The notes under the pieces are model-generated. The model made no database searches, was not told the DNA's origin, and worked only from the letters and a program-made list of their open reading frames with translations. Below are positions 23,549 through 40,454 of a stretch of 64,000 nt of DNA, piece after piece. Made by a program: the position numbers and the translations under genes. How positions within the stretch are numbered: the stretch's first letter is position 1; the number at the start of each line of letters is the position of its first letter. The stretch is taken from contig NZ_VTUC01000003.1 of NCBI RefSeq assembly GCF_008364555.1, positions 62,001 through 126,000 on the forward strand, given 5' to 3'. Source of the DNA: Enterobacter vonholyi. Lineage in GTDB: Bacteria > Pseudomonadota > Gammaproteobacteria > Enterobacterales > Enterobacteriaceae.

Positions 23549-24379
23549 CTATTTCCCTTCACCCAGCCGATACGCCAGCGCCACCACCAGCGACTGCACC
23601 AGGCACAGCGTCGCCGACTGAGACCGAAACGCGTCCACCTGCGCCTCTTTCACCACAAAGCAGAGGTCGCTGAACGTCGCCAGGGGGCTTATCTGGCTGT
23701 CCGTAATCACGATCTGCCGCGCGCCGACGCTGGCGGCGGTTTCGCTGACCATCACCGTCTCTTCCGCGTACGGCGAGAAGCTGATCGACACCACGATGTC
23801 GCGCGCCTTAATGCGGCTGATCTGTTCGCGCAGCATCCCGCCCATGCCGTCGAGCAGAATAGGGCGACACTCCAGGTGGCTCAGGGCATAGGTGAGGTAC
23901 GCGGCGACGCTAAAGGAGCGGCGCAGTCCGGCGATGTAGATGGTGTCGGCCTCGGCCAGCAGCTGTACTGCGCGCTCCAGCATCTCCGGCTCGGCGCGGG
24001 CGGCCAGCTGCTGCAGCGCCTGCGCGTTCGAGCGGGCAAACTCCTGCAGGATATCGAGCGGCGTTTCCGGCACGGCCTCGCTCTCCATCTCGCGGAACAT
24101 TCGGGCGCGGTCGCTGTAGCTGGCGGTCTCCTCCACTAGGTTCATGCGAAACAGCTGTTTCATTTCGTTGAAGCCGGTGAAGTCAAAGGCGTTGGCAAAG
24201 CGGATCAGCGTCGAGGGCGGCACGTCGGCGCGTTCGGCAATGACGGCAACCGTATCAAAGGCCACGCTGTTGGTGTTGTCCAGCACGTAGCGGGAGACCT
24301 GCTGCAGCCTCTTGCTCAGGCTATCGTAGCGATCGCGGATTTGCTGCTGCAGTTCGTTCAGGCTGGTTGCTGTCGTCAT
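23549..24379 (-). CDS. iolR: RpiR-family regulator, probable inositol repressor IolR
   Basis: 276-residue regulator with an N-terminal HTH_6 domain (about 1-80; VAVIAERADVPPSTLIRFANA) and a C-terminal SIS phosphosugar-binding domain (about 125-255; ADTIYIAGLRRSFSVAAYL). In Salmonella and Klebsiella-type iol loci the repressor is an RpiR-family protein, unlike the DeoR-family IolR of Bacillus. The start at 24379 follows GGGGGA on the minus strand; an upstream in-frame ATG at 24481 would add 34 residues outside the family domain. It is divergent from iolA, and a partial copy of the iol palindrome lies upstream at 24460-24477. The ligand is likely a phosphorylated inositol-pathway intermediate (inference). 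Confidence 0.85.
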   Translation of the reverse strand: MTTATSLNELQQQIRDRYDSLSKRLQQVSRYVLDNTNSVAFDTVAVIAERADVPPSTLIRFANAFDFTGFNEMKQLFRMNLVEETASYSDRARMFREMESEAVPETPLDILQEFARSNAQALQQLAARAEPEMLERAVQLLAEADTIYIAGLRRSFSVAAYLTYALSHLECRPILLDGMGGMLREQISRIKARDIVVSISFSPYAEETVMVSETAASVGARQIVITDSQISPLATFSDLCFVVKEAQVDAFRSQSATLCLVQSLVVALAYRLGEGK

Positions 24380-24459
24380 CTTATCCCCCAAATACAGTCT
24401 TATGATTCTAAACGCAAAACCGCGTCTTTTAAATATCGGCCATCCATCTGGCAGCAAAA

Positions 24460-24477
24460 ATGAAACAGAAGATTCAG
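24460..24477 (-). promoter_or_regulatory. Candidate IolR operator upstream of iolR
   Basis: ATGAAACAGAAGATTCAG matches 12 of 18 positions of the reverse complement of the palindrome before iolA (ATGAAACAAATATTCCAT), identical over the first eight bases. It may permit autoregulation. Weak evidence by itself. Confidence 0.35.
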
Positions 24478-24589
24478 TCATTTCCTCGCCCGAGATCCCT
24501 TAATAGCGCACGTGGCGTCAGTGGTGCTGGCTGTTAACATAAAAATCCATCCTTGATCACAATAATCATCATTTATTTTATTTCAACTT

Positions 24590-24635
24590 AAAATGGAATA
24601 TTTGTTTCATGTATAGTGTTCAGTACACAGCGTTC
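24590..24635 (+). promoter_or_regulatory. iolA promoter with candidate IolR operator
   Basis: The imperfect palindrome ATGGAATATTTGTTTCAT (24593-24610) is followed by the -10-like TATAGT (24612-24617) and then CACAGCGTTCA. The same block, in the same order, occurs before iolG (28349-28397). Shared sequence at the two catabolic promoters of one locus is good evidence for a common operator/promoter. Confidence 0.6.
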
Positions 24636-24671
24636 AGGTAACAGTCACGAATCAACAGCGAGAGGTTAAGG

Positions 24672-26177
24672 ATGGAGACGGTAGCGAATTTTATTCACGG
24701 CGAATGTGTCACCGGTTCAGGCCAGCGCGTTCAGGCGATCTTCAACCCGGCCACCGGCGAGCAGATCCGCCAGGTGGTGATGAGTACGGCACAGGAAACG
24801 GAGCAGGCGATTGCCGCCGCGCAGCAGGCGTTTCCGGCGTGGGCGCGTCATGCTCCGCTTAAGCGCGCGCGCGTGATGTTCCGCTTCAAAGCGCTGCTTG
24901 AAGAGAACATGGATCGCCTGGCCCGCCTCATCAGCGAAGAGCACGGCAAGGTCTTCTCCGACGCGGTGGGCGAACTGACCCGCGGCCTGGAAGTGGTGGA
25001 GTTTGCTTGCGGCATCCCGCATCTGCAAAAGGGAGAACACTCGGCGAACGTCGGTACCGGCGTCGACAGCCACTCGCTGATGCAGCCGCTCGGCGTCTGC
25101 GCCGGGATCACGCCGTTTAACTTCCCGGCGATGGTGCCGATGTGGATGTTCCCGATTGCGCTGGCGACCGGCAACACCTTCGTGCTGAAGCCGTCGGAAA
25201 AAGACCCTTCTCTGGCGCTCGCGCTGGCGCAGCTGCTGAAAGAAGCCGGCCTGCCGGACGGCGTCTTCAACGTGGTGCAGGGCGATAAAGAGTCCGTTGA
25301 CGTGCTCCTGACCGACCCGCGCGTGCAGGCGGTGAGCTTTGTCGGCTCCACGCCGATTGCGGAATACATTTACCAGACCGCGTCCGCCCACGGCAAGCGC
25401 TGTCAGGCGCTGGGGGGCGCGAAAAACCACTGCATTTTAATGCCGGATGCCGACATGGAGATGGCGACCAACGCCATCATGGGCGCGGCCTACGGCGCGG
25501 CGGGGGAACGCTGCATGGCGCTCTCGGTAGTGCTGGCGGTGGGGGATAAAACCGCCGATGACCTCTGTACTCGGCTGGAGAAACAGATTGCCGCGCTGCG
25601 CGTCGGGCCGGGCCTGGACCAGTCGCCGGAAAACGAAATGGGGCCGCTCATCTCCTCCGCGCACCGCAGCAAGGTGCTGGGCTATATCGACAGCGGGGAA
25701 GCGCAGGGAGCAAAACTGCGCGTGGACGGTCGCGGCTTCAGCGTGAAGGGCCATGAGCAGGGCTACTTCGTTGGGCCGACGCTGTTCGATAACGTCACTC
25801 CTGAGATGACCATCTATAAAGAAGAGATTTTTGGCCCGGTGCTTTCTGTGGTGCGCGTAGCAGATTACGCCAGCGCGGTGGATCTGATTAACCGCCATGA
25901 ATATGGTAATGGTTCGGCGATCTTCACCCGCGACGGCGGCTGCGCGCGCCGCTTCTGCGAAGAGGTGCAGGCGGGCATGGTGGGGGTCAACGTGCCGATT
26001 CCGGTGCCGATGGCATTCCACAGCTTCGGCGGCTGGAAGCGTTCCATCTTCGGTGCGCTCAACGTTCACGGCAGCGACGGCGTGCGTTTCTACACCCGAA
26101 TGAAAACCATCACCGCGCGCTGGCCGGAAATGCAGCAGGAGACAGGCGCTGCGTTCTCCATGCCGACGCTGGGCTGA
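24672..26177 (+). CDS. iolA: CoA-acylating malonate/methylmalonate-semialdehyde dehydrogenase
   Basis: Last inositol-pathway enzyme, converting malonate semialdehyde to acetyl-CoA and CO2 with NAD+ and CoA. 501 residues of the aldehyde dehydrogenase superfamily; the catalytic cysteine is Cys281 in [11 protein letters not shown], and the GGAKNH segment (248-253) replaces the usual GGKNP/general-base glutamate region, a hallmark of MMSDH enzymes. RBS AGGTTAAGG precedes ATG 24672. It is the first gene of iolA-iolD, divergent from iolR. A valine-pathway MmsA would be the alternative, but the neighbours argue for IolA. Confidence 0.95.
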
Positions 26178-26188
26178 CAGGAGGCGTT

Positions 26189-28114
26189 ATGCAAACCGAA
26201 CGTATGACCATGGCTCAGGCGCTGGTCCGGTTCCTTAATCAACAGTACGTTAGCGTGGATGGCGATGAAACTCCCTTCGTGGAGGGCGTCGCCACCATCT
26301 TTGGGCACGGCAACGTGCTGGGCATTGGCCAGGCGCTGGAGCAGGATCCCGGCCATCTGCAGGTGATGCAGGGCTGCAACGAGCAGGGCATCGCCCATAT
26401 GGCGACGGGATTCGCCAAACAGCACCGTCGTCAGCGCATCTTTGCCGTCACCTCCTCCGTCGGGCCGGGCGCCGCCAATATGGTCACGGCCGCGGCAACC
26501 GCTACGGCGAACCGCATCCCGCTGCTGCTGCTTCCGGGCGATATCTACGCCAGCCGCCAGCCGGACCCGGTACTGCAGCAGATCGAGCAGTATCACGATC
26601 TCAGCATCAGCACCAACGACTGCTTCCGTCCGGTCTCCCGCTACTGGGACCGCATCTACCGTCCCGAGCAGTTGATGAGCGCAATGCTTAGCGCGATGCG
26701 AACGCTTACTGACCCGGCAGATACCGGTGCGGTTACGATTTGCCTGCCGCAGGACGTGCAGGGGGAAGCGTGGGATTACCCGCTAAGCTTCTTTGCGCGT
26801 CGCGTGCACCACATCGAGCGTCGTCCACCCGATCCGCAGCGTCTGGCGCAGGCGCGGGCGCTGATCGCCCGCAAGCGTCGCCCTCTGGTGGTGTGCGGCG
26901 GCGGGGTGCGTTATTCCGGCGCGCATGAGGCGTTTCGCGACTTTGTCGAGACGCTGCAGCTGCCGTTTGCCGAAACTCAGGCCGGAAAGGGGGCGCTGGT
27001 AAGTGACCACCCACTTAACCTCGGTGGCGTAGGGGTGACGGGCGGAATGGCGGCCAACCAGCTCGCGCCGCAGGCTGACCTGGTGATTGGCATCGGCACG
27101 CGCCTGACCGACTTTACCACCGGCTCCAAGGCACTCTTTTCCCATCCGGACGTCGAATTTCTGCTACTGAACGTGGCCGAGTTTGACGCTCTGAAGCTGG
27201 ACGCTACGGCGCTGATTGCCGACGCTCAAACCGGACTCCAGGCATTGACCCACGCGCTCGGTGATTACCGCAGCGGCTGGGGAGAGGCGATCGCTGAGGC
27301 GAAATCCGCCTGGCGCGACGAGTGCCGCCGCCTGTGGGATCGCCAGTGGCGTCCGGACGACGCACCCGAAGTGGCGGGGCACCTGGATACGCAGCTGGCG
27401 GAGTACGGCAAGACGCTCAACACCCGCCTGACCCAGACGCGGGTGCTGGGGCTGATCAACCAGCATGTGGAAGATAACGCCATCGTGGTGGGCGCGGCCG
27501 GTTCGCTGCCGGGCGATTTACAGCGCCTCTGGCAGGTCAAAACGCCGGACAGCTATCACCTGGAGTACGGCTACTCCTGCATGGGGTACGAGATTGCGGC
27601 GGCCATCGGCGCGAAGCTCGCCAGACCCGGGCTGCCGGTGTACGCCATGGTGGGAGATGGCTCCTACATGATGCTGCACTCCGAGCTGCAAACCGCCGTG
27701 CAGGAGGGTATTAAGGTTACCGTTTTGCTGTTTGATAACGCCAGCTTCGGCTGCATTAACAACCTGCAGATGGGGCACGGCATGGGCAGCTTTGGCACGG
27801 AAAACCGCCACCGCAACCCGGAAACCGGACGCCTTGACGGTCCGCTGGTGAAGGTCGATTTTGCGCAAAATGCGGAGAGCTACGGCTGCCGCGCGTGGCG
27901 GGTGAACGATGAGCAAAGCCTGCTGGCGGCGCTGGAGGCGTCCCGTGCGCATCCCGGCCCAACGCTGCTGGACATCAAGGTGCTACCGAAGACCATGACC
28001 CACGACTACGCCTCCTGGTGGCGAACCGGTGATGCGCAGGTGGCGGAATCGTCTGCCGTGCGTGAAGCCGCGGAGCAAACGCAGGCGCAGGTGATAAAAG
28101 CCCGTCAGTATTAA
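26189..28114 (+). CDS. iolD: 3D-trihydroxycyclohexane-1,2-dione hydrolase
   Basis: Thiamine-diphosphate enzyme that opens the ring of 3D-(3,5/4)-trihydroxycyclohexane-1,2-dione to give 5-deoxyglucuronate. 641 residues, with the three domains of the acetolactate-synthase superfamily: N-terminal PYR domain ([15 protein letters not shown] contains the catalytic glutamate region), a middle domain, and a C-terminal ThDP-binding domain with [12 protein letters not shown] ending in [19 protein letters not shown] precedes ATG 26189, 11 bp after iolA. The gene is followed by a 300-bp non-coding gap. Confidence 0.96.
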
Positions 28115-28155
28115 GTTTTTCCGCCGTAACGAAATTTTCATTTCATTTTTATTTT

Positions 28156-28250
28156 CCCCTCACCCCAGCCCTCTCCCCAAAGGGGAGAGGGAGAAAAGAC
28201 CGCGCCGTACCGTCCCCTCTCCCCTTTGGGGAGAGAGTTATGGTGAGGGG
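28156..28250. repeat. Inverted pair of boxC-like palindromic repeats
   Basis: Two ~37-bp GC-rich elements, 28156-28191 and 28214-28250, are reverse complements of each other; each contains the palindrome CTCTCCCCAAAGGGGAGAG and a CCCCTCACC end. They resemble the interspersed boxC family of enterobacterial genomes. A half-element recurs at 57547-57581. Transcribed, the pair would form a large stable hairpin that could end the iolAD transcript. Confidence 0.7.
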
Positions 28251-28267
28251 CACATCTTCCGCGATGT

Positions 28268-28283
28268 TGTGAGATTGATAACA
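28268..28283 (+). promoter_or_regulatory. Candidate CRP site upstream of iolG
   Basis: TGTGAgattgaTAACA matches the TGTGA-N6-TCACA CRP consensus at 9 of 10 core positions. Its centre lies about 107 bp before the presumed start site, a distance possible for class I activation. Carbon-catabolite control of inositol genes would make sense. Confidence 0.4.
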
Positions 28284-28348
28284 AAATTTATCTCATTCAT
28301 CTCAAAAGTGTTAACCCGCACTCAAAAACATAATTTTCACTATTTATA

Positions 28349-28397
28349 AAAATGAAATAAATGTTTTATTTATAGGGTCGTTAGTTCACAGCATTCA
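28349..28397 (+). promoter_or_regulatory. iolG promoter with candidate IolR operator
   Basis: ATGAAATAAATGTTTTAT (28352-28369) is followed by TATAGG (28371-28376) and CACAGCATTCA, collinear with the block before iolA at 24590-24635. Over the first ~31 bases about 25 are identical. Confidence 0.6.
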
Positions 28398-28415
28398 CCA
28401 ACACCGGGAGCCGTT

Positions 28416-29402
28416 ATGTTTAACATTGCTTTACTGGGCGCTGGCCGAATTGGCCAGGTACATGCAGCTAACATCGCCAGCCACGGCGCGACCACGCTCT
28501 GGTCCGTGGTTGACCCGAATCAGGAATTTGCCACCCGCCTCGCCACGCAGTATCAGGCCCGCCAGCAGAGCCTGGATGAAGCGATGACCGACCCTAACGT
28601 TCACGCCGTGCTGATCGCCTCTGCCACCGATACCCACGCGGACCTGATTGAAATGGCCGCCCGCCACGGCAAGGCCATCTTCTGTGAAAAGCCGGTACAC
28701 CTCGACCTCGCCCGCGTGCGCGACTGCCTGAAGGTGGTCAAAGAGTATGACGTGCCGCTGTTCATTGGCTTTAACCGCCGCTTTGACCCGCAGTTCCGCC
28801 GCGTGAAAACCGACGCGCAGGCCGGGTGCATCGGCAAACCGGAATCGTTGCTCATCATCTCCCGCGACCCGTCTCCGCCGCCTGCGGAGTACGTGCGCGT
28901 TTCCGGCGGCATGTTCCGCGATATGACCATTCACGACTTTGACATGGCCCGCTTCATCATGGGCGAAGAGCCGGTGTCGGTGTATGCCCAGGGCAGTAAC
29001 CTGGTCGATCCGGCGATTGGCGAGGCGGGGGACATCGATACCGCGTTTATCGTTCTGAAATACGCTTCCGGCGCGATGGCGACCATCGTTAACAGCCGCC
29101 GTTCATCTTACGGCTACGACCAGCGCCTGGAGCTGCACGGCTCCGAAGGGCTGCTGTGCGCGGGCAACATTCTGGAAAACCAGGTGCAGCACTACGGCAA
29201 ACAGGGCTGCACCAGCGCGCTGCCGGAACACTTCTTCCTGCAGCGCTACAAATCCGCTTACGCCGCGGAATGGGAACACTTTGTCGCGGTCCTGCGCGGC
29301 GAAGCGGTACCTGACTGCAGCGGCGATGATGGTGAACGTGCGCTGTACCTCGCGGATAAAGCGCTGGAGTCACTCCGCAGCCAGCGCGAGATCGTCCTCT
29401 AA
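28416..29402 (+). CDS. iolG: myo-Inositol 2-dehydrogenase
   Basis: First catabolic step, oxidation of myo-inositol to scyllo-inosose with NAD+. 328-residue Gfo/Idh/MocA oxidoreductase; the Rossmann motif GAGRIGQVHAANI lies at residues 8-20, the conserved EKP that contributes the catalytic lysine at about 96-98, and the substrate-domain motif GGMFRDMTIHDFDMARF at about 166-182. RBS GGGAG; start ATG 28416. Leads the iolG-ABC-oxidoreductase-iolCEB unit. The second oxidoreductase at 33014 is distinct. Confidence 0.94.
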   Translation: MFNIALLGAGRIGQVHAANIASHGATTLWSVVDPNQEFATRLATQYQARQQSLDEAMTDPNVHAVLIASATDTHADLIEMAARHGKAIFCEKPVHLDLARVRDCLKVVKEYDVPLFIGFNRRFDPQFRRVKTDAQAGCIGKPESLLIISRDPSPPPAEYVRVSGGMFRDMTIHDFDMARFIMGEEPVSVYAQGSNLVDPAIGEAGDIDTAFIVLKYASGAMATIVNSRRSSYGYDQRLELHGSEGLLCAGNILENQVQHYGKQGCTSALPEHFFLQRYKSAYAAEWEHFVAVLRGEAVPDCSGDDGERALYLADKALESLRSQREIVL

Positions 29403-29433
29403 ACACAACTACCCTACACAGAGAGACATAATA

Positions 29434-30363
29434 ATGAAAAAACTGATCGTAGCCGCCCTCATCGCCATGACGTCCGGGGCCGCCCTCGCCGAAAACGAGC
29501 AAATTGTTTTCAGTACGCCAAACCTGGCCATGCCGTTTGAAGTTCACATGCAGCGCACGGCGGTGAAAGCCGCAAAAGAGATGGGCGTGAAGCTTCAGGT
29601 ACTGGACGGGCAGGGCAGCTCGCCGAAGCAGGTTGCTGACCTGGAAAACGCCATCACCCGCGGGGCGCAGGGCTTTATCGTTTCCCCGAACGATGTGAAC
29701 GCGGTCTCCAGCGCGGTGGATGAAATTCAGGATGCGAAGCTGCCGGTGGTCACCCTTGACCGCTCCGTCGACAGCCAGAAGAAGGTGCCGCACTTTGGCG
29801 CCAACAACTACAAGGGCGGCCAGGCGATTGGCGACTTCGTTAAAACCAAATTCCCCGACGGGGCGGAGATCATTCTGCTGACCGGCCAGCCGGGCTCCTC
29901 CTCCAACATCGAACGCACCAAAGGGATCCGCGACAGCCTGAAGGCGGGCGGGGATAAGTACAAGATTGTCGCCGATCAGACCGGCAACTGGATGCGTTCT
30001 GAAGGGATGCGCATCGTGGAAAGCGTGCTGCCCTCGCTGCCGAAACGTCCTCAGGTGATCCTCTCCGCTAACGACGACATGGCGCTGGGGGCGATCGAAG
30101 CGCTGCAGAGCCAGGGCGTGAAGCCGGGCGAAATTCTGGTCACAGGCTTTGACGCGGTACCGGAAGCGCTGGCCCGCGTGCGCGACGGCTGGCTGGCGGT
30201 GACGGCGGACCAGCGTCCGGGTTTTGCGGTGCAGACGGCGATGAGCCAGCTGGTGGCCAACGTGCGCGAGAAGAAAGCCATCACCGGGGCCGACTACCCG
30301 CCGACGCTGATCACTAAAGAGAACCTGCAGCAGGCTGAGCGTATCGGTGAGGCCGGTAACTGA
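29434..30363 (+). CDS. Sugar ABC transporter periplasmic binding protein, probable inositol-binding
   Basis: Type I periplasmic binding protein of the ribose/galactose class (Peripla_BP_4), 309 residues. A Sec signal peptide of about 19 residues ends at AALA, before ENEQIVFSTP. Related sugar-binding features are ANDDMALGAIEAL and VTGFDAVPEAL. The start ATG 29434 is preceded by GAGAGA; an in-frame extension back to 29281 would overlap iolG and lacks a signal sequence. Position inside the iol locus suggests an inositol ligand, as in the Caulobacter IbpA-IatA-IatP system (inference). A 9-bp hairpin separates it from the ATPase gene. Confidence 0.88.
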   Translation: MKKLIVAALIAMTSGAALAENEQIVFSTPNLAMPFEVHMQRTAVKAAKEMGVKLQVLDGQGSSPKQVADLENAITRGAQGFIVSPNDVNAVSSAVDEIQDAKLPVVTLDRSVDSQKKVPHFGANNYKGGQAIGDFVKTKFPDGAEIILLTGQPGSSSNIERTKGIRDSLKAGGDKYKIVADQTGNWMRSEGMRIVESVLPSLPKRPQVILSANDDMALGAIEALQSQGVKPGEILVTGFDAVPEALARVRDGWLAVTADQRPGFAVQTAMSQLVANVREKKAITGADYPPTLITKENLQQAERIGEAGN

Positions 30364-30372
30364 TTTATCCGC

Positions 30373-30394
30373 AGCCGCCGCTGGCGCGGCGGCT
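30373..30394 (+). other. Intercistronic hairpin after the binding-protein gene
   Basis: Perfect stem AGCCGCCGC (30373-30381) / GCGGCGGCT (30386-30394) with loop TGGC and no T-tract. Such hairpins often protect the binding-protein mRNA from 3' exonucleases and raise its level over the membrane components. Confidence 0.55.
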
Positions 30395-30417
30395 CACTCT
30401 AAAGGAGGAGCAGACCG

Positions 30418-31965
30418 ATGTCGCAACCCTTACTGAAAGTGACCGACCTGGCAAAAAGCTTTTCCGGCGTCTGGGCGTTAAGCAGCGCCCAGCTGACCGT
30501 CGGCGCGGGCGAGATCCACGCCCTGCTGGGGGAAAACGGGGCGGGTAAATCCACGCTGCTGAAGGCGCTCGCGGGGGCGCAGCCGCAAACCCGCGGGGAT
30601 ATCTGGTTCAACGGCGAAACGCTGCCGGTGGACGACTCCCCGGTGGAGCGCCAGAACAAGGGCATTATCACCATCTATCAGGAATTTAATCTGCTGCCCA
30701 ACATGACCGTCGCGGAAAACATGTTTCTCGGGCGCGAGCCGCGTAAACGCAACCTGATCGTCGACGAAAAGGCGGTTAATCAGGAAGCGCAGGTCATTCT
30801 CGACTATCTGCAGCTGAACGTTGCGCCGACCACGCCGGTCGCCCGTCTGAGCGTTGCCCAGCAGCAGATGGTGGAGATCGCCCGGGCGCTGACCCTCAAC
30901 GCCAGGCTGATCATTATGGACGAACCTTCCGCCGCGCTGAGCGACAGCGAGGTGGAAAGCCTGCATCGCGTGGTGCGGGAGCTTAAAAACCGCGGCGTAA
31001 GCATTATTTACGTTACCCACCGCCTGCACGAAGTTTTCCAGCTCTGCGACCGCTTCACCGTTTTCCAGGACGGCCGCTTCACCGGCACCGGCGCGGTGGC
31101 GGAGACCAACGTCGAACAGCTGATCCGCCTGATGGTCGGGCGCGACGTGGCCTTTAACCGTCGTCCCGCCAGCGAAACCCATCATGAGGACAAACCCGTC
31201 CGCCTGGCGGTGAAGGGGCTGAGCCGCGAAAAGCCGCCGCTGGATCCGCACGGCATTGCCCTGCATGACATCAGCTTCCACGTTCACGCCGGGGAGGTCT
31301 TAGGCATTGCCGGACTGGTGGGCGCCGGGCGCACCGAAGTGGCCCGCTGCCTGTTTGGCGCGGACGCGTTTACCTCGGGCAGCTTTGAACTGGACGGCGT
31401 GCCGTACCAGCCGCGCGACCCGCTTTATGCGCTCGATCAGGGCGTGGCGCTGGTGCCGGAAGACCGCAAAAAAGAGGGGGCGGTGCTGGGGCTGTCGATT
31501 CGCGACAACCTGTCGCTCTCCTGCCTCTCTTCGCTGCTGCAGTGGCGCTGGTTCGTGAACACCCGCAAAGAGGACGATCTGATCGAGTCCTACCGCAAGG
31601 CGCTGCAGATCAAAATGGTCAACAGCGCGCAGGAGGTGCGCAAGCTCTCCGGTGGTAACCAGCAAAAGGTGATCCTCGCGCGCTGCATGGCGCTCAACCC
31701 GCGGGTGCTGATCGTAGATGAGCCGACGCGCGGCATTGACGTGGGGACCAAATCAGAAGTGCACCAGGTGCTGTTTGACATGGCGAAAAAGGGCGTGGCG
31801 GTGATCGTGATCTCCTCCGATCTGCCTGAAGTGATGGCGGTGTCAGACCGGATCATTACCCTGAGCGAAGGGCGAGTGACCGGCGAGATCCACGGTGACG
31901 ACGCTAACGAAGAACGGCTGATGACGATGATGGCCATCAACCACAACGCCCTGAACGCGGCATAA
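30418..31965 (+). CDS. Sugar ABC transporter ATP-binding protein
   Basis: 515-residue tandem ATPase of the RbsA/MglA/IatA class that powers import. First domain: Walker A GENGAGKST (about 39-47), signature LSVAQQQM, Walker B LIIMDEP. Second domain has the typical degenerate GLVGAGRTE in place of Walker A, with signature LSGGNQQK and Walker B VLIVDEPTRGIDVG. RBS AAGGAGGAG precedes ATG 30418. It lies 54 bp after the binding-protein gene and 11 bp before the permease gene. Confidence 0.93.
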   Translation: MSQPLLKVTDLAKSFSGVWALSSAQLTVGAGEIHALLGENGAGKSTLLKALAGAQPQTRGDIWFNGETLPVDDSPVERQNKGIITIYQEFNLLPNMTVAENMFLGREPRKRNLIVDEKAVNQEAQVILDYLQLNVAPTTPVARLSVAQQQMVEIARALTLNARLIIMDEPSAALSDSEVESLHRVVRELKNRGVSIIYVTHRLHEVFQLCDRFTVFQDGRFTGTGAVAETNVEQLIRLMVGRDVAFNRRPASETHHEDKPVRLAVKGLSREKPPLDPHGIALHDISFHVHAGEVLGIAGLVGAGRTEVARCLFGADAFTSGSFELDGVPYQPRDPLYALDQGVALVPEDRKKEGAVLGLSIRDNLSLSCLSSLLQWRWFVNTRKEDDLIESYRKALQIKMVNSAQEVRKLSGGNQQKVILARCMALNPRVLIVDEPTRGIDVGTKSEVHQVLFDMAKKGVAVIVISSDLPEVMAVSDRIITLSEGRVTGEIHGDDANEERLMTMMAINHNALNAA

Positions 31966-31976
31966 CGGAGTTTCTC

Positions 31977-33005
31977 ATGACGCAGATGATTTCTAAAACG
32001 CAGGCCCCGGTCAAACGCGCCGGACGCATCGATCCCATCGCCTTCTTCGAGCGCTTCGGGGTGCTGATTTTCATGATCTTGCTGCTGATCTTCTTTCAGT
32101 CGCAGAACAGCAATTTTTTCTCTGAACGCAATATTTTCAACATCCTGACCGAAGTCTCCATCTACGGGATCATGGCCGTGGGGATGACCTTTGTCATCCT
32201 GACCGCCGGGATTGACCTTTCCGTCGGCTCAATTCTGGCGGTCTGCGCCATGACCGCGGCGTACGTGATTAAGGGCGACAACTTCACCACCGTCGACCCG
32301 AACGCCTGGGGCGGCATGAGCTGGCTGATTGGGCTGGGGATTTGTCTGGCGATGGGCACGGCGATTGGCTTCCTGCACGGTCTGGGCGTAACCCGTCTGC
32401 GCCTGCCGCCGTTCATCGTGACCCTCGGCGGGATGACCATCTGGCGCGGCCTGACGCTGGTGATCAACGACGGCGCGCCGATTGCCGGTTTCGATCAGGG
32501 CTACCGCTGGTGGGGGCGCGGGGAGCTGCTCGGCATCTCCATTCCGATCTGGATCTTCGCCATCGTCGCCCTCGGCGGCTATCTGGCGCTGCATAAAACC
32601 CGCTGGGGCCGATTCGTCTACGCCATCGGCGGTAACCCGGAGGCGGCGCGCCTGGCGGGGGTGAACGTCAAGCGCGTGCTGGTCAGCGTCTATGTGCTGA
32701 TCGGCTGTCTGGCGGGACTGGCGGGCTTCATCCTGAGCGCGCGTCTGGGGAGCGCCGAGGCGGTGGCCGGGATCTCTTTTGAGCTGCGCGTCATCGCCTC
32801 GGTGGTGATCGGCGGTACCTCGCTGATGGGCGGCTACGGGCGCATCGGCGGCACCATTATCGGCTCCATCATCATGGGGATTCTGATTAACGGCCTTGTG
32901 CTGATGAACGTCTCGGCCTACTACCAGCAGATTATCACCGGATTAATTATCGTTCTGGCGGTGGCGTTTGATACCTACGCCAAGAGCCGTCGCGGCGCAC
33001 TGTGA
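31977..33005 (+). CDS. Sugar ABC transporter permease
   Basis: 342-residue inner-membrane permease of the RbsC/BPD_transp_2 family with about 8-10 hydrophobic segments. Family motifs include LTAGIDLSVGSILA near residue 80 and YAIGGNPEAARLAGVNV near 215-235, followed by VASVVIGGTSLMGGYGR. It works with the upstream ATPase and binding protein as a homodimeric channel. Its stop codon is eight bases before the next ATG, showing tight operon packing. Confidence 0.93.
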   Translation: MTQMISKTQAPVKRAGRIDPIAFFERFGVLIFMILLLIFFQSQNSNFFSERNIFNILTEVSIYGIMAVGMTFVILTAGIDLSVGSILAVCAMTAAYVIKGDNFTTVDPNAWGGMSWLIGLGICLAMGTAIGFLHGLGVTRLRLPPFIVTLGGMTIWRGLTLVINDGAPIAGFDQGYRWWGRGELLGISIPIWIFAIVALGGYLALHKTRWGRFVYAIGGNPEAARLAGVNVKRVLVSVYVLIGCLAGLAGFILSARLGSAEAVAGISFELRVIASVVIGGTSLMGGYGRIGGTIIGSIIMGILINGLVLMNVSAYYQQIITGLIIVLAVAFDTYAKSRRGAL

Positions 33006-33013
33006 GGATCACG

Positions 33014-34147
33014 ATGAAAGAGGTTCGTATTGGATTAATTGGCACCGGGTATATCGGCAAGGCGCACGCTATCGCCTATGCCCAGGCCCCAACGGTGTTC
33101 AACCTGCGCGGCAGGCTGGTGCGCGAGATGGTGGCGGAAGTCACGCCGGAGCTGGCGGCAGAGCGCGCGCAGGCGTTTGGCTTCAACCGCTCCACCGGCG
33201 ACTGGCGGGCGCTGGTGGCCGACCCGGCTATTGATGTGGTGGATATTTGCTCACCCAACCATCTGCATAAAGAGATGGCGCTGGAGGCGATCCGCCACGG
33301 CAAGCACGTCTACTCGGAGAAGCCGCTGGCGCTGTACGCCCACGACGCGCGGGAGATGGTTGACGCCGCGAAGCGGGCCGGGGTGAAAACGCTGGTGGGG
33401 TTCAACTACATGAAGAACCCGACGGCGCAGCTGGCGAAGGAGATTATCGCCCGCGGTGAAATTGGCGAGGTGATCCACTTCTACGGCACCCACAACGAAG
33501 ACTATATGGCCGACCCGCTGTCGCCCATTCACTGGCACTGCTTTAAAGAGACCGCCGGGCTGGGGGCGCTGGGCGACCTCGCGGCGCATATTGTCAATAT
33601 GGCCCAGTACCTGGTGGGGGATATTGAGCAGGTCTGCGGCGACCTGAAGATCGTGGTCCCGGCGCGCCCGGCGAAGGCCGGATCGTCGGACATGATTGCC
33701 GTCGAAAACGAGGATCAGGCCCACGCGATGGTGCGCTTCGCGGGCGGGGCGCAGGGCGTGATTGAAACCTCCCGCGTCGCCTGCGGCCGCAAGATGGGGC
33801 TGTCGTACGTCATCACCGGGACGAAAGGCGCCATCAGCTTCACCCAGGAGCGCATGGCGGAGCTGAAGCTCTATCGGCATGACGATCCGGTGAACCGTCA
33901 GGGATTCCGGACCTTACTCGTCGGCCCGGCGCACCCGGACTACGCCGCGTTCTGCATGGGCGCAGGACACGGGATTGGCTTTAACGATCAAAAAACGGTG
34001 GAGGTGCGCGATCTGGTGGACGGGATTGCCGCCGACGCGCCGATGTGGCCGGACTTCGAAGAGGGCTGGAAGGTATCGCGCGTGCTGGATGCAATCGCGC
34101 TCTCGCACCGGGAAGGCCGCTGGCTGAACGTGAACGACATTGTCTGA
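33014..34147 (+). CDS. Gfo/Idh/MocA-family oxidoreductase (second inositol-type dehydrogenase)
   Basis: 377-residue NAD(P)-dependent oxidoreductase with an N-terminal Rossmann motif GTGYIGKAHA, conserved EKPLA at about 97-101, and a C-terminal GFO/IDH domain containing GALGDLAAHIVNMAQYL. It differs from iolG in length and substrate domain. Likely substrates are another inositol isomer, an inosose, or a related sugar acid; the sequence alone does not decide. Start ATG 33014 follows GAGG, chosen over an in-frame GTG at 33002 that overlaps the permease stop. Confidence 0.85.
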   Translation: MKEVRIGLIGTGYIGKAHAIAYAQAPTVFNLRGRLVREMVAEVTPELAAERAQAFGFNRSTGDWRALVADPAIDVVDICSPNHLHKEMALEAIRHGKHVYSEKPLALYAHDAREMVDAAKRAGVKTLVGFNYMKNPTAQLAKEIIARGEIGEVIHFYGTHNEDYMADPLSPIHWHCFKETAGLGALGDLAAHIVNMAQYLVGDIEQVCGDLKIVVPARPAKAGSSDMIAVENEDQAHAMVRFAGGAQGVIETSRVACGRKMGLSYVITGTKGAISFTQERMAELKLYRHDDPVNRQGFRTLLVGPAHPDYAAFCMGAGHGIGFNDQKTVEVRDLVDGIAADAPMWPDFEEGWKVSRVLDAIALSHREGRWLNVNDIV

Positions 34148-34159
34148 TGAGGTATCAAC

Positions 34160-36064
34160 GTGGAAAAGCAGTTTGATGTGATATGCATGGGCCGCGTGGC
34201 GGTAGACCTCTACAGTCAGCAGATTGGTGCCCGTCTGGAGGATGTGTCGAGCTTCGCCAAATACCTCGGCGGCTCGTCCGGCAACGTGGCGTACGGCACC
34301 GCGCGCCAGGGCCTGCGCTCGTCGATGCTGGCACGCGTCGGCGATGAACATATGGGCCGCTTCCTGCGCGAAGAGCTCAACCAGGTGGGCTGCGATACCA
34401 GTCATCTGATTACCGATAAAGACCGCCTCACGGCGCTGGTGCTACTCGGCATTAAAGACCGGGACACCTTTCCTCTGATTTTTTATCGCGATAACTGCGC
34501 GGATATGGCCATTACGGCTGGCGATGTGGACGAAAGCTACATTGCCTCCGCACGTTGTCTTGCCATCACCGGGACTCACCTTTCTCATCCTCAGACCCGC
34601 GAGGCGGTGCTGACGGCGCTGGGCTATGCCCGCCGTCACGGCGTGCGCACGGTGCTGGACATCGACTACCGTCCGGTGCTGTGGGGGCTCACCGCCTTAG
34701 GCGACGGTGAAACGCGCTTTATCGCCGCCGATAAGGTCACCCGCGAGCTGCAGGAGGTGCTGCACCTCTTCGACGTCGTTGTCGGCACCGAGGAGGAGTT
34801 TCACATTGCGGGCGGCAGCACGGATACCCTGCAGGCGCTGGGGCAGGTGCGTGCAGTCAGTGACGCAGCGCTGGTCTGCAAACGCGGCGCGCTCGGCTGC
34901 TCGGTCTATACCGACGCCATTCCGCCCCGGCTGGACGACGGCCTGACGGTGACCGGCGTGCGCGTGGAGGTGCTGAACGTCCTCGGCGCAGGGGACGCGT
35001 TTATGTCCGGCCTGCTGCGCGGTTACCTGAACGACGAGGGCTGGGAGCAGGCGTGCCGCTACGCCAACGCCTGCGGCGCGCTGGTGGTTTCGCGCCACGG
35101 CTGCGCCCCGGCGATGCCGAGCAAAATCGAGCTGGATGACTATCTTTCGCGCGCTGCAGATGTGCCGCGCCCGGATCTTGACCCGCGTCTTAACCATCTC
35201 CACCGGGTGACCACCCGACGCCGCGAGTGGCCGGAGCTGTGCGTGATGGCCTTCGACCACCGCAGCCAGCTTGAGGATATGGCGATGCAGTGCGGCGCGT
35301 CGCTTAAGCGCATTCCGGCGCTGAAGCAGCTGATCCTGCAGGCCAGTCGCGAGGCGGCAAGCCGCGCCGGGCTGGAGGGCAAAGCCGGCCTGCTGTGCGA
35401 CGGAACCTTTGGTCAGGACGCGCTGAACGCCATCACCGGCGAGGGGTGGTGGATTGGCCGTCCCATCGAGCTGCCGGGCTCCAGGCCGCTGGAGATGGAG
35501 CATGGCAACATCGGCACCCAGCTCATCAGCTGGCCGCAGGAGCATGTGGTGAAGTGCCTGGTCTTCTTCCACCCGGAAGACGCTCACGGCCTGCGCCTGG
35601 AGCAGGAGCAGAAAATCGCCGAGGTGTACCACGCCTGCTGCCGGTCCGGGCATGAGCTGCTGCTGGAGGTGATATTGCCCGCCAGCATGCCGCGCAGCGA
35701 CGAGCTCTACCTGCGCGCCATCTCCCGTTTCTACAACCTCGGCATTTACCCCGACTGGTGGAAGCTGCCGCCGCTTTCCGCCGAGGGCTGGACGGCGCTG
35801 AGCGAGATTATCGAACGCCGGGACCCGCACTGCCGCGGGGTGGTGATCCTCGGCCTGGATGCCCCGGCGGAACAGCTGCGCGCCGACTTCAGGGCCGCAG
35901 CAGGGCAGACGGTAGTAAAAGGCTTCGCCGTGGGGCGCACGCTGTTTGGCGATGCCTCCCGCGCGTGGCTGAAGCACGATATTGACGATGCGCAGCTGGT
36001 GGCACGCATCCGGGACAACTACCTGCAGCTTATCGCCTGGTGGCGCGAGCGCGGACACGCATAA
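34160..36064 (+). CDS. iolC: 5-dehydro-2-deoxygluconokinase fused to DUF2090 domain
   Basis: 634-residue two-domain protein. Residues 1 to ~325 form a PfkB/ribokinase kinase with the signature GAGDAF (276-281, Asp279 catalytic base), which phosphorylates 5-dehydro-2-deoxygluconate. Residues ~355-634 are DUF2090, with FDHRSQ (365-370), VKCLVFFHPED (464-474) and PDWWKLPP (531-538). These resemble class I TIM-barrel aldolases of the LacD/DhnA type, so the domain may perform the IolJ step, splitting the phosphorylated product to malonate semialdehyde and DHAP (inference). GTG start at 34160 after GAGG. No separate iolJ is present in the window. Confidence 0.93.
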   Translation: MEKQFDVICMGRVAVDLYSQQIGARLEDVSSFAKYLGGSSGNVAYGTARQGLRSSMLARVGDEHMGRFLREELNQVGCDTSHLITDKDRLTALVLLGIKDRDTFPLIFYRDNCADMAITAGDVDESYIASARCLAITGTHLSHPQTREAVLTALGYARRHGVRTVLDIDYRPVLWGLTALGDGETRFIAADKVTRELQEVLHLFDVVVGTEEEFHIAGGSTDTLQALGQVRAVSDAALVCKRGALGCSVYTDAIPPRLDDGLTVTGVRVEVLNVLGAGDAFMSGLLRGYLNDEGWEQACRYANACGALVVSRHGCAPAMPSKIELDDYLSRAADVPRPDLDPRLNHLHRVTTRRREWPELCVMAFDHRSQLEDMAMQCGASLKRIPALKQLILQASREAASRAGLEGKAGLLCDGTFGQDALNAITGEGWWIGRPIELPGSRPLEMEHGNIGTQLISWPQEHVVKCLVFFHPEDAHGLRLEQEQKIAEVYHACCRSGHELLLEVILPASMPRSDELYLRAISRFYNLGIYPDWWKLPPLSAEGWTALSEIIERRDPHCRGVVILGLDAPAEQLRADFRAAAGQTVVKGFAVGRTLFGDASRAWLKHDIDDAQLVARIRDNYLQLIAWWRERGHA

Positions 36065-36075
36065 TGGAGAAGACA

Positions 36076-36966
36076 ATGAGTGTACAACTGGGCATTAACC
36101 CGCTGACGTGGACGAACGACGATCTGCCTTCTCTGGGCGCGGAGACGTCGCTGGAAACCTGCCTGAGCGAAGGTAAGGAGGCCGGTTTCGCCGGCTTCGA
36201 GCTGGGCAATAAGTTCCCGCGCGAAGCGCGCCTGCTCGGCCCCATCCTGCAGCGCCACGACCTGCAGCTGGTCTCCGGCTGGTACTCCGGTCGCCTGCTG
36301 GAGCGCAGCGTGGAGGAGGAGATCGCCGCCGTGCAGTCCCACCTGACGCTGCTGCGCGAGCTGGGGGCGAAGGTGCTGGTCTTTGCGGAAGTGAGCGGCT
36401 GCATTCACGGCGACCAGCAGACCCCGGTGCATCTGCGCCCGCGCTTCCCGCAGGCGCGCTGGAAGGAGTACGGTGAGAAGCTTACCGAATTTGCCCGCTA
36501 CACCCAGCAGCAGGGCGTGCAGATTGCCTACCATCACCATATGGGCACGGTGATTGAGTCCGCCGACGATGTGGACAACCTGATGACCCACACCGGCGAT
36601 GCGGTGGGGCTATTGCTCGATACCGGCCATCTGACCTTTGCCGGGGCCGATCCGCTGGCGGTGGCGCAGCGCTGGGCGTCGCGCATCAACCACGTCCACT
36701 GCAAAGACGTGCGTGCCGACGTGCTGGCGGACGTGAAAAACCGTAAAACCAGCTTCCTCGACGCGGTGCTGAGCGGCGTGTTTACCGTGCCGGGCGATGG
36801 CTGCGTCGATTACCCGCCGATTATGCGGCTGCTGAAGGCGCAGGATTATCACGGCTGGCTGGTGGTGGAGGCCGAGCAGGACCCGGCGATTGCCCATCCG
36901 CTGACCTACGCCCGTCTGGGGTATAACAATCTGAGCCGCCTGGCGCGCGACGCCGGACTGATTTGA
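36076..36966 (+). CDS. iolE: Inosose dehydratase
   Basis: Dehydrates scyllo-inosose to 3D-trihydroxycyclohexane-1,2-dione. 296 residues of the AP-endonuclease-2/xylose-isomerase TIM-barrel family, with metal-binding patterns such as GFAGFELGNKFP, EVSGCIHGDQQTP and LLLDTGHLTFAGADP. Start ATG 36076 follows GGAGA; a second ATG at 36064, overlapping the iolC stop, would add four residues. It lies between iolC and iolB, ten bases before the latter. Confidence 0.95.
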   Translation: MSVQLGINPLTWTNDDLPSLGAETSLETCLSEGKEAGFAGFELGNKFPREARLLGPILQRHDLQLVSGWYSGRLLERSVEEEIAAVQSHLTLLRELGAKVLVFAEVSGCIHGDQQTPVHLRPRFPQARWKEYGEKLTEFARYTQQQGVQIAYHHHMGTVIESADDVDNLMTHTGDAVGLLLDTGHLTFAGADPLAVAQRWASRINHVHCKDVRADVLADVKNRKTSFLDAVLSGVFTVPGDGCVDYPPIMRLLKAQDYHGWLVVEAEQDPAIAHPLTYARLGYNNLSRLARDAGLI

Positions 36967-36975
36967 GGAGGTGAC

Positions 36976-37800
36976 ATGTCACGTCTGTTATCACGCTGGC
37001 AACAGCCGAACGCGGAGGGGCGCACCCAGTCCGTCATGCCGGAAAGCGCAGGGTGGGGGTACGTCGGCTTTGAGGCGTATGAACTGCAGGAGGGGCAGAC
37101 GCTGACGCTGCCCGCCGTCCGCGAAGAGCGCTGTCTGGTGCTGGTCGCCGGGCGCGCCTCCATCACAACGCCTTCCGCGCAGTTTAACGATATTGGCGGG
37201 CGGATGAGCCCGTTCGAGCGCATCAAGCCGTGGGCGGTGTACGTCACCCCGCAGGAGACGGTACAGGTGAAGGCGCTTACGAAGCTTGAGCTGGCGGTCT
37301 GCGCCGCGCCTGGCAAAGGCACGTATCCGACGCGGCTGATTGCGCCGCAGGATATCGACGGCGAAGCGCGCGGTAAGGGCCACAATCAGCGCTACGTGCA
37401 CAACATTTTGCCGGAAGACAAGCCCGCCGACAGCCTGCTGGTGGTGGAGGTGTGGACCAATGAGGGCTGCACCAGCTCGTATCCGAGCCACAAGCATGAC
37501 ACGGATAATCCGCCGCAGGAGACGTATCTGGAGGAGACCTACTACCATCGCCTCAACCCGGAGCAGGGGTTCTGCATGCAGCGCGTCTACACCGACGACA
37601 GAACGCTGGATGAGTGTATGGCGGTCTATAACCGTGACGTGGTCATGGTGCCGAAGGGCTACCACCCGGTGGCGACGATGGCCGGGTATGACAGCTACTA
37701 CCTCAACGTGATGGCCGGGCCGGTGCGCAAATGGATGTTCACCTGGGAGGAGGACCACGCGTGGATTAATCGCGATTATCCCGCAGATGGCGGGCACTGA
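36976..37800 (+). CDS. iolB: 5-deoxy-glucuronate isomerase
   Basis: Converts 5-deoxyglucuronate to 5-dehydro-2-deoxygluconate, the substrate of IolC. 274 residues of the KduI/IolB cupin family; the metal-binding region contains SYPSHKHD (about 174-181) and the downstream EETYYHRLNP, with a final histidine in KGYHPV. RBS GAGGAGG precedes ATG 36976. Last gene of the inositol unit; a REP element follows. Confidence 0.95.
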   Translation: MSRLLSRWQQPNAEGRTQSVMPESAGWGYVGFEAYELQEGQTLTLPAVREERCLVLVAGRASITTPSAQFNDIGGRMSPFERIKPWAVYVTPQETVQVKALTKLELAVCAAPGKGTYPTRLIAPQDIDGEARGKGHNQRYVHNILPEDKPADSLLVVEVWTNEGCTSSYPSHKHDTDNPPQETYLEETYYHRLNPEQGFCMQRVYTDDRTLDECMAVYNRDVVMVPKGYHPVATMAGYDSYYLNVMAGPVRKWMFTWEEDHAWINRDYPADGGH

Positions 37801-37853: not shown

Positions 37854-38597
37854 TTATTTTGCTTCAATCGCCTGCTCAATCGTCCGGGCAACGATCTGCG
37901 GCTGGCTGACCATAGACACGTGGCTTGCCGCCACCTCGGTGGTTTTCGCGTGGATCGTCTTCGCCATCGCCCGTTCAAGATCGGGGTTGATCATTCGGTC
38001 ATTCTTGCTAACCACATACCAGCTCGGTTTGTCATGCCACGCCGCGTGGGGGACTTTTTCACCAAAAGCCTCAGCCTTAATTGGCCCCTGCGTGGCTGCA
38101 ATCGTATCTTGAATGGCTGGCTTCACGTCAGGCGCGAAATCCTTCCTGAGGGCTTCCGTCGGCAGGTATAAATAGCCGTCCGCCGTTTTGGCAATGACTG
38201 CGCTACCCGGCGGCGCAGGGTAGCTTCCTGCCAGGTCCGCCGTCGACTGGCCGGAATCAGGCGCGAATGCCGCCACATACACCAGCGATTTTACCCGCGC
38301 ATCGTTGCCCGCCTCGCTAATCACGGTGCCGCCCCAGGAGTGGCCCACCAGCACTACGTCACCCTGCGCGCGGGCGATGGCCCGCTTTGTGGCGGCAACG
38401 TCATCGTTGAGCGACGTGAGCGGGAGCTGGACGGCAATGACCTCGGCGTGCTGCTTCTGCAACAGGGCAATCACCTTATTCCAGCTGCTGCCGTCGGCAA
38501 ACGCGCCGTGAACCAGCACGACGCTGGTTTTACCCTGCGCAAAGGCGCTGGCGGAAAGCGCCAGCAGGCCTGCCGTTAGTACAGTCAGTGCTTTCAT
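37854..38597 (-). CDS. Exported alpha/beta hydrolase
   Basis: 247 residues with a Sec signal peptide (about 1-20, cleavage near AFA/QGK). Mature part is an alpha/beta hydrolase: oxyanion segment HGAFADGSSW (30-39), nucleophile Ser87 in GHSWGG, likely acid Asp200 (SKNDR) and histidine His226 (ASHVSM). Resembles small esterase/haloperoxidase-like enzymes; substrate unknown. It is 11 bp downstream of the DUF6130-like gene, so the two are co-transcribed and both periplasmic. Not present at this site in E. coli K-12. Confidence 0.85.
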   Translation of the reverse strand: MKALTVLTAGLLALSASAFAQGKTSVVLVHGAFADGSSWNKVIALLQKQHAEVIAVQLPLTSLNDDVAATKRAIARAQGDVVLVGHSWGGTVISEAGNDARVKSLVYVAAFAPDSGQSTADLAGSYPAPPGSAVIAKTADGYLYLPTEALRKDFAPDVKPAIQDTIAATQGPIKAEAFGEKVPHAAWHDKPSWYVVSKNDRMINPDLERAMAKTIHAKTTEVAASHVSMVSQPQIVARTIEQAIEAK

Positions 38598-38608
38598 CTT
38601 GAGACTCC

Positions 38609-39076
38609 TTAAAAATGGTGGACTTCCGCGTGGGGCGGTACGGTGAATTCAATGGTTTTGTGGTCGAGCGGCTTGTGCGTCGGGTCGGCCAGAATAATCG
38701 TCACCTTGTGTTTACCGGCGGGGAGTCCCACCAGAATTACCGGCTCTCCGCTGGCGTCAGCCCAGTGCCAGGGCGCGTCATCCACCACCACGTGAATGTG
38801 TCCGATGCGCGGGGTGACCTTGAGCGCTTCAGGTCCGAATACCGGCTCGATGCGCAGGTTTTCGGCACGGTACTGGATAAACACCGCGCCTTTGCTCAGC
38901 GGCCCGGCAAGCGGGGGATCGACGATCAGCTTTGCGGGCGGCTGCGGCTGCGCCAGCGGGGCAACGGCGGCGGGGCCGTTAACGTCCCCGGCGCTCAGGT
39001 TGTCCAGCGGCGTGGCCTGGGCATGGGCTACAGATGCCAGGACAAGCAGGGTGATAAGTGCATAACGACGGGTCAT
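38609..39076 (-). CDS. Exported DUF6130-like protein
   Basis: 155-residue protein with a signal peptide (about 1-20, ending near AHA/QAT), a Pro/Ala-rich stretch, and a beta-rich C-terminal domain with HIHVVVDDAPWHW and GLPAGKHKVTIILADPTH, as in the DUF6130 family; the ending VPPHAEVHHF is His-rich. Function unknown; the HIH and HHF clusters could bind metal (inference). First gene of a two-gene unit with the exported hydrolase; MFS gene upstream is on the same strand but 51 bp away. Confidence 0.75.
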   Translation of the reverse strand: MTRRYALITLLVLASVAHAQATPLDNLSAGDVNGPAAVAPLAQPQPPAKLIVDPPLAGPLSKGAVFIQYRAENLRIEPVFGPEALKVTPRIGHIHVVVDDAPWHWADASGEPVILVGLPAGKHKVTIILADPTHKPLDHKTIEFTVPPHAEVHHF

Positions 39077-39127
39077 CGGTCTCTCTCCTCATCGGTTCTG
39101 AATGGCGACAGGGAAAGAAAACCATTT

Positions 39128-40357: not shown

Positions 40358-40397
40358 TATTTTTCATTCCGCTATGCAGTTGTCCTGAGCATAACGG

Positions 40398-40443
40398 GCG
40401 CGGTATTGTGCTGGCAGGGCAGCAACCTTATGCGCGGTATAAG
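40398..40443. promoter_or_regulatory. Candidate LysR-type binding sites between MFS and LysR genes
   Basis: GCGCGGTAT occurs as a direct repeat at 40398-40406 and 40432-40440, 34 bp apart. The second copy sits in CTTAT-N7-ATAAG (40427-40443), which fits the T-N11-A pattern of LysR operators. Confidence 0.5.
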
Positions 40444-40454
40444 AGAAACTTTGA

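What the first reader, a model, noticed from the sequence alone, without database searches (positions are those of the whole stretch)
23549..37800. Complete inositol catabolic locus with its own ABC importer and no iolI or iolT
All genes for inositol to acetyl-CoA are present (iolG, iolE, iolD, iolB, iolC, iolA), with a Caulobacter-like binding protein/ATPase/permease trio instead of the IolT-type MFS carriers used by Salmonella. It is inserted between guaA and yfgG, where E. coli K-12 lacks it. The architecture differs from the Salmonella iol island and suggests a distinct lineage.
Basis: partly seen in the sequence, partly recalled or inferred. Interest (0 to 1): 0.7.

Follow-up and report, generated by a model that had tools for sequence, protein, structure and literature searches.

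The report
Common Enterobacter inositol-use operon

Summary
Window 23549-37800 holds an intact 11-gene myo-inositol locus: iolR, iolA, iolD, iolG, binding protein, ATPase, permease, a second Gfo/Idh dehydrogenase, iolC, iolE, iolB. The importer is of the inositol type: its binding protein matches Mannheimia 4rxm and Caulobacter IbpA 4irx far better than ribose proteins and groups with them, apart from the genome's own RbsB and MglB. The binding protein occurs in 23 of 61 genomes of the genus, all downstream of guaA. A Salmonella type (MFS carriers, iolI, reiD) and a Klebsiella type (a different ABC transporter) are alternative enteric versions in the records read. Small additions: a conserved IolR-like operator, and an altered substrate pocket in the second dehydrogenase. 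Ordinary; low interest.

The parts
23549..24379 (-). iolR, RpiR-family repressor (HTH_6 + SIS); start uncertain, the longest ATG ORF begins at 24481
24593..24610 (+). candidate IolR operator ATGGAATATTTGTTTCAT, upstream of iolA
24672..26177 (+). iolA, CoA-acylating (methyl)malonate-semialdehyde dehydrogenase
   Evidence: TIGR01722
26189..28114 (+). iolD, trihydroxycyclohexanedione acylhydrolase
   Evidence: TIGR04377
28352..28369 (+). candidate IolR operator ATGAAATAAATGTTTTAT, upstream of iolG
28416..29402 (+). iolG, inositol 2-dehydrogenase
   Evidence: TIGR04380
29434..30363 (+). periplasmic inositol-binding protein (IbpA-like)
30418..31965 (+). ABC ATPase (IatA-like by position and family)
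31977..33005 (+). ABC permease (IatP-like by position and family)
33014..34147 (+). second Gfo/Idh/MocA dehydrogenase (here iolG2), scyllo-inositol dehydrogenase-like
34160..36064 (+). iolC: 5-dehydro-2-deoxygluconokinase fused to DUF2090 aldolase
36076..36966 (+). iolE, inosose dehydratase
36976..37800 (+). iolB, 5-deoxy-glucuronate isomerase
   Evidence: KduI/IolB

Best explanation
An IolR-repressed myo-inositol utilisation locus. The binding protein captures inositol in the periplasm and the ATPase/permease import it. IolG oxidises it to scyllo-inosose, then IolE, IolD, IolB, the IolC kinase domain, the IolC DUF2090 aldolase domain and IolA carry it to acetyl-CoA and a triose phosphate. IolR sits at two operators, one before iolAD and one before iolG-ABC-iolG2-iolCEB, and an inositol intermediate relieves it. 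Shown here: gene content, family membership, collinearity, conserved operator-like sites, aldolase-like fold of the DUF2090 model. Inferred: substrate, repression, inducer, and the role of the second dehydrogenase (probably another inositol isomer such as scyllo-inositol). The reaction order is established knowledge of the pathway, recalled.
For: Curated family scores. Binding protein phmmer E 6.4e-135 to 4rxm and 1.1e-71 to Caulobacter 4irx, against 1.6e-39 for ribose-binding protein 1dbp; 25 rows, window, 4rxm and IbpA among them, form one side of a branch, support 99/98. In a family sample 35 of 35 genomes with this binding protein also have iolD, against 65 of 357 without it (Fisher p about 1e-23). 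Ten plus-strand genes in this order in 44 of 80 named loci, 42 of them with divergent iolR (the 80 are the best hits only). Operator-like site at no more than 2 mismatches upstream of iolA in 43 of 44 and of iolG in 44 of 44; 2 matches in the whole own genome, both here. The motif resembles the Caulobacter IolR-linked GGAA-N6-TTCC (passages). All 5 Providencia ABC trios, which have no iol genes in the fetched flanks, also carry the site upstream. DUF2090 model matches class I tagatose-bisphosphate aldolase LacD, E 1.3e-11. Price 2022 reports IolC-DUF2090 fusions important for inositol growth in nine bacteria (passages). Deleting Aeromonas iolR raises iol transcription (passages).
Against: No experiment on this organism. 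The motif was read from the window's own two sites and near relatives, so its conservation is not independent of ancestry, and the shuffle control for the relatives keeps only base composition. It is missing upstream of the importer in the 24 more distant loci L074-L082 and L084-L098 and in L072 (exact GGAA-N6-TTCC also absent there), so those 40-51% identical homologs may serve other regulons. The ligand of 4rxm was not shown by any search (recalled as myo-inositol). Seven of the 25 rows of the clade are such distant homologs of unknown substrate, and several paralog branches are long (warns). The ATPase and permease were not placed in a tree.
Confidence: 0.93

Rival explanations
1. The ABC trio imports another sugar (ribose- or galactose-type) and only happens to lie inside the iol locus.
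For: NCBIfam's best hits for the three proteins are ribose and arabinose equivalogs.
Against: None of the sugar models shown passes its curated cut-off (RbsB 169 vs 337 bits; AraG 530 vs 689; ribose permease 281 vs 398). The genome has its own RbsB and MglB over their cut-offs. Tree and PDB search place the binding protein with IbpA; 35 of 35 carriers have iolD.
Confidence: 0.04
2. The locus serves several inositols or related polyols: iolG2 oxidises an isomer other than myo-inositol and the importer is broad. (Compatible with the best explanation, an extension of it.)
For: iolG2's best PDB matches are scyllo-inositol/L-glucose dehydrogenase. The catalytic Lys, Asp and His and the pocket His318 are kept, but two inositol-contact residues, Tyr163 and Arg178, are His in all 23 aligned sequences.
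Against: No substrate data. iolG2 matches only as a 57-residue stretch in Brenneria salicis L057, so it seems dispensable there. It scores below the cut-offs of all 10 models listed.
Confidence: 0.45
3. A recently acquired mobile island at the guaA site rather than an old genus locus.
For: Patchy in the genus (23 of 61); plasmid copies in E. coli and Y. ruckeri; the guaA-to-yfgF interval is variable. That guaA is an integration site of islands is recalled; one search shows 26 papers holding the words (listing only).
Against: No second copy of the last 25 bases of guaA in the window at up to 4 mismatches. Presence is clustered on the guaA tree: 6 changes against 10.6 shuffled, 0 of 500 as low (41 of the 61 genomes, window included, 12 with and 29 without). 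23 of 23 copies lie 5.9-50 kb from guaA.
Confidence: 0.15

Closest known systems
iol cluster of epidemic Aeromonas hydrophila (PMC3835674, passages read)
   Same: 11-ORF iol cluster with an iolR and transport genes (one called rbsA); growth on inositol shown. The A. cavernicola contig L055 shows the same order over the part it covers.
   Different: That paper found no aldolase gene in the cluster; here the step is assigned to the IolC DUF2090 domain. I did not fetch A. hydrophila's cluster itself.
Caulobacter ibpA-iatA-iatP and iol genes (PMC2597717, passages read)
   Same: Binding protein/ATPase/permease inositol importer, a sugar-responsive IolR next to the iol genes, palindromic operator.
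   Different: In Caulobacter the importer and the catabolic genes are at separate sites; here one locus. Binding protein clearly diverged (E 1.1e-71).
Salmonella-type iol island (L188 from E. coli, L190 from a Salmonella plasmid)
   Same: Core catabolic enzymes, IolC-DUF2090 fusion (domain 61% identical).
   Different: IolT1/IolT2 carriers, iolI1, reiD, srfJ, different order; IolD about 61% identical.
Klebsiella pneumoniae iol locus (L189, one record)
   Same: Core enzymes and an ABC transporter next to them.
   Different: Transporter is a different kind: one binding protein, one ATPase, two permeases and a phosphodiesterase gene; IolD about 62% identical.

Membership tests
myo-inositol catabolic cluster (IolCatGC, Weber & Fuchs 2022: at least 3 of iolB, C, D, E together) | core genes iolB, iolC, iolD, iolE within 10 kb of each other | tested here: met
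   all four in 26189-37800; definition passages
myo-inositol catabolic cluster | inositol dehydrogenase and malonate-semialdehyde dehydrogenase | tested here: met
   TIGR04380 and TIGR01722 over cut-off
myo-inositol catabolic cluster | DKGP aldolase step | tested here: met
   by sequence and fold only: NF047869 over cut-off, DUF2090 493 bits, LacD-like fold, invariant Lys and Glu 38 residues apart as in LacD Lys126/Glu164; activity not tested
Caulobacter-type inositol ABC importer (IbpA-IatA-IatP) | binding protein groups with IbpA and not with ribose/galactose proteins | tested here: met
Caulobacter-type inositol ABC importer (IbpA-IatA-IatP) | ATPase and permease group with IatA and IatP | not tested
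   no tree was made of them
Caulobacter-type inositol ABC importer (IbpA-IatA-IatP) | required for growth on inositol / binds inositol | not testable with these tools
   needs an experiment
Salmonella-type iol island | IolT MFS carriers | tested here: not met
   best own match 33% identical
Salmonella-type iol island | iolI present | tested here: inconclusive
   no match in own genome, but the search had no positive control
scyllo-inositol dehydrogenase (Pl-scyllo-IDH) for iolG2 | Arg178 and Tyr163 substrate contacts | tested here: not met
   both are His in all 23 rows

The most novel reading that the evidence does not exclude
The second dehydrogenase, kept between the permease and iolC in all 44 collinear loci, is an uncharacterised subclass of the scyllo-inositol dehydrogenase group with a His/His-altered pocket, and opens the pathway to an inositol isomer or related polyol that neither Salmonella-type nor Bacillus-type loci handle in this way.
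Probability: 0.3. Interest if true: 0.35.

Novelty: already known. Interest (0 to 1): 0.12.

Why it matters
It shows that enteric bacteria use at least three alternative uptake arrangements around the same inositol enzymes, and that the version here is a standard one. The IolR-like operator and the conserved second dehydrogenase give simple, testable predictions, but neither changes how inositol catabolism is understood.

Tried and rejected
Rejected: ribose/galactose specificity of the ABC trio. Rejected: a missing aldolase step (IolC-DUF2090). Rejected: an att-type duplication of the guaA 3' end around the locus (one hit per sequence, the gene itself, in the window and all 40 fetched loci). 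Considered and not settled: gain versus loss in the genus (one search counts changes, not direction, and holds 41 of the 61 genomes). Earlier I thought several Enterobacter copies lay away from guaA because guaA was missing from 10-kb flanks; one search shows that all 23 are downstream of guaA, with up to about 44 kb of other DNA in between. A second structure prediction, of iolG2, was not run.

Paper searches. I saw passages of PMC3835674, PMC2597717, PMC9007349, PMC5969746 and PMC7239862, and the abstract, passages and sections 6 and 9 of PMC9430895; the rest as search listings. I make no claim that the operator or the iolG2 subclass is absent from print.

Full report
What is there. The window lies on contig C33 of a 4.59-Mb genome. 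Its genus contains strains labelled Enterobacter: by matching coordinates, G429 is the contig of L019 (E. sichuanensis) and G405 that of L023 (labelled Lelliottia nimipressuralis). From 23549 to 37800 it carries iolR on the minus strand and ten genes on the plus strand: iolA, iolD, iolG, binding protein, ATPase, permease, a second dehydrogenase, iolC, iolE, iolB. Gaps between them are 8-54 bp except about 0.28 kb between iolR and iolA (the start of iolR is uncertain) and 301 bp between iolD and iolG, which suggests two operons, iolAD and iolG-to-iolB, each with its own control region. Family scores are given under the observation check.

Pathway. IolC here is a 634-aa fusion: PfkB kinase at the N terminus, DUF2090 at the C terminus. 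A model of the DUF2090 domain (17 rows, mean pLDDT 78.6, pTM 0.79) finds class I tagatose-1,6-bisphosphate aldolase LacD as the best PDB match (E 1.3e-11, TM about 0.69, 13% identity). Lys146 and Glu184 of the domain are invariant in 20 rows and 38 residues apart, the spacing of LacD Lys126/Glu164 reported by Price et al. 2022, who propose DUF2090 as the missing aldolase and show that IolC-DUF2090 fusions matter for inositol growth (passages). The same fusion occurs in the Salmonella-type and Klebsiella-type loci read.

Importer. By phmmer the binding protein scores E 6.4e-135 with 4rxm from Mannheimia and 1.1e-71 with 4irx, Caulobacter IbpA; next come 4zjp (named only monosaccharide-transporting ATPase) at 6.5e-42 and ribose-binding proteins at 1.6e-39 and weaker. 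The organism names of 4rxm and 4irx, and that 4rxm was solved with myo-inositol, are recalled; in the tree 4rxm coincides with the Mannheimia locus L068. In that 32-row tree, 25 rows form one side of a branch (99/98) against own RbsB-, MglB-, XylF-, YtfQ- and LsrB-like proteins, one more paralog, and 2ioy; within it window, 4rxm, 4irx and the Comamonadaceae rows form an 18-row group (98/94) apart from seven distant homologs. RbsB and MglB were confirmed by curated models; the other labels are my own. Several paralog branches are long, as the tool warned. The ATPase and permease were not put in trees. In a sample of 392 genomes of the family, the binding protein occurs in 35, iolD in 100, and all 35 have iolD. 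Thus about a third of iolD carriers in that sample have this importer.

How common. Of the other 36: L048 and L055 are cut by contig ends; L057 lacks a full iolG2; five Providencia loci have the trio alone; four Pasteurellaceae loci are rearranged; five Comamonadaceae loci have another order; the remaining 19 (L079-L082, L084-L098) have the binding protein with all or part of the trio and no close iol match beside it, some of them on short contigs. The module is also on an E. coli plasmid, with IS and group II intron genes on the iolR side, on an E. coli chromosome next to fimbrial genes with the binding-protein gene annotated as frameshifted, and, from iolA on, on a Y. ruckeri plasmid (the stretch read ends 326 bp before iolA, so iolR was not seen). 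In E. coli, 57 of 5426 genomes match iolD; 49 at 80-90% (this type in the two read) and 8 at 60-80% (Salmonella type in the one read). Weber and Fuchs 2022 report iol clusters in 29.8% of species and 39% of 594 Enterobacteriaceae species.

Place. In the genus 23 of 61 genomes have the binding protein. All 23 have it on the same contig as guaA, downstream and 5.9-50 kb away: 7 under 6.1 kb, which is direct adjacency as in the window, 19 within 16 kb (coordinates). Of 40 genomes read at this site 11 have iol and 29 do not; those 29 have, between guaA and yfgF, all or some of the abh-DUF6130-MFS-LysR genes, nothing that matches, or other DNA of up to about 15 kb; one holds an RND efflux pump pair and a two-component system, named by me from the sequence. 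So the interval is a variable site. Presence is clustered on the guaA tree (6 changes; shuffles average 10.6; 0 of 500 as low), which fits mainly vertical inheritance with several losses or exchanges. I found no duplicated guaA end.

Control. Comparing relatives with the window (20 before iolA; 19 rows seen before iolG, the output being cut) showed one conserved block in each region. Together they read ATGRAATAWWTGTTTYAT, an imperfect palindrome. In the window it occurs at these two sites only at up to 3 mismatches (4 rows, two of them the reverse reading; 0.19 expected by shuffles), and the whole genome holds just these two at up to 2 mismatches, with none for the reversed control pattern. 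Among the 44 collinear loci, 43 have a site before iolA (L032 has one only at 3 mismatches) and 44 before iolG, against 0.2% and 0% for shuffles that keep base composition only. All five Providencia importer operons have one too; with dinucleotide shuffles L061 (3 matches, two of them before the importer, 0.22 expected) stands out, L070 (1 match, 0.12 expected; 12 of 100 shuffles reach it) hardly does. The Pasteurellaceae give 3 of 4 at 2 mismatches, without a chance estimate. The 24 more distant loci (L074-L082, L084-L098) give none. Caulobacter's IolR-linked motif is GGAA-N6-TTCC; ours is GGAA-N6-TTTC before iolA and GAAA-N6-TTTT before iolG, similar but not identical. IolR binding is inferred. 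In A. hydrophila, iolR deletion raises iol transcription.

Second dehydrogenase. iolG2 is closest in the PDB to scyllo-inositol dehydrogenase with L-glucose activity (5ya8, E 9.2e-99). By that alignment the catalytic Lys106, Asp191, His195 and the pocket His318 of that enzyme are kept as Lys103, Asp188, His192 and His319, while Tyr163 and Arg178 are both His (160, 175) in all 23 aligned rows. Its substrate is open; another inositol isomer is the simplest guess.

Verdict. A correct reading of an ordinary locus. The claim of a distinct lineage holds only against Salmonella's island, not among enteric bacteria at large.

Noticed in passing
L061, L062, L063, L070, L083 (up to 10 kb around the match): Providencia carries the inositol-type ABC trio with no iol match within the fetched flanks, yet with one or two IolR-like sites upstream: a possible unlinked member of the same regulon.
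   Followed up: partly
L189:18982-24104: The Klebsiella pneumoniae iol locus has another kind of ABC set (one binding protein, one ATPase, two permeases) with a phosphodiesterase gene inside, perhaps for a phosphodiester such as glycerophosphoinositol.
   Followed up: no
L111:7011-15269: In an iol-negative genome of the genus the guaA-abh interval holds what looks like an RND pump, its adaptor and a two-component system: guaA side as a variable cargo site.
   Followed up: partly
L057:13730-13900: iolG2 matches only over a 57-residue stretch in Brenneria salicis while the rest of the operon is kept.
   Followed up: no
window 37854-41327: Alpha/beta hydrolase, DUF6130 protein, MFS and LysR genes follow iolB and stay together in many genomes of the genus with or without iol; relation to inositol unknown.
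   Followed up: partly
L066: Edwardsiella anguillarum has the ten-gene operon but no iolR match in the fetched flank.
   Followed up: no
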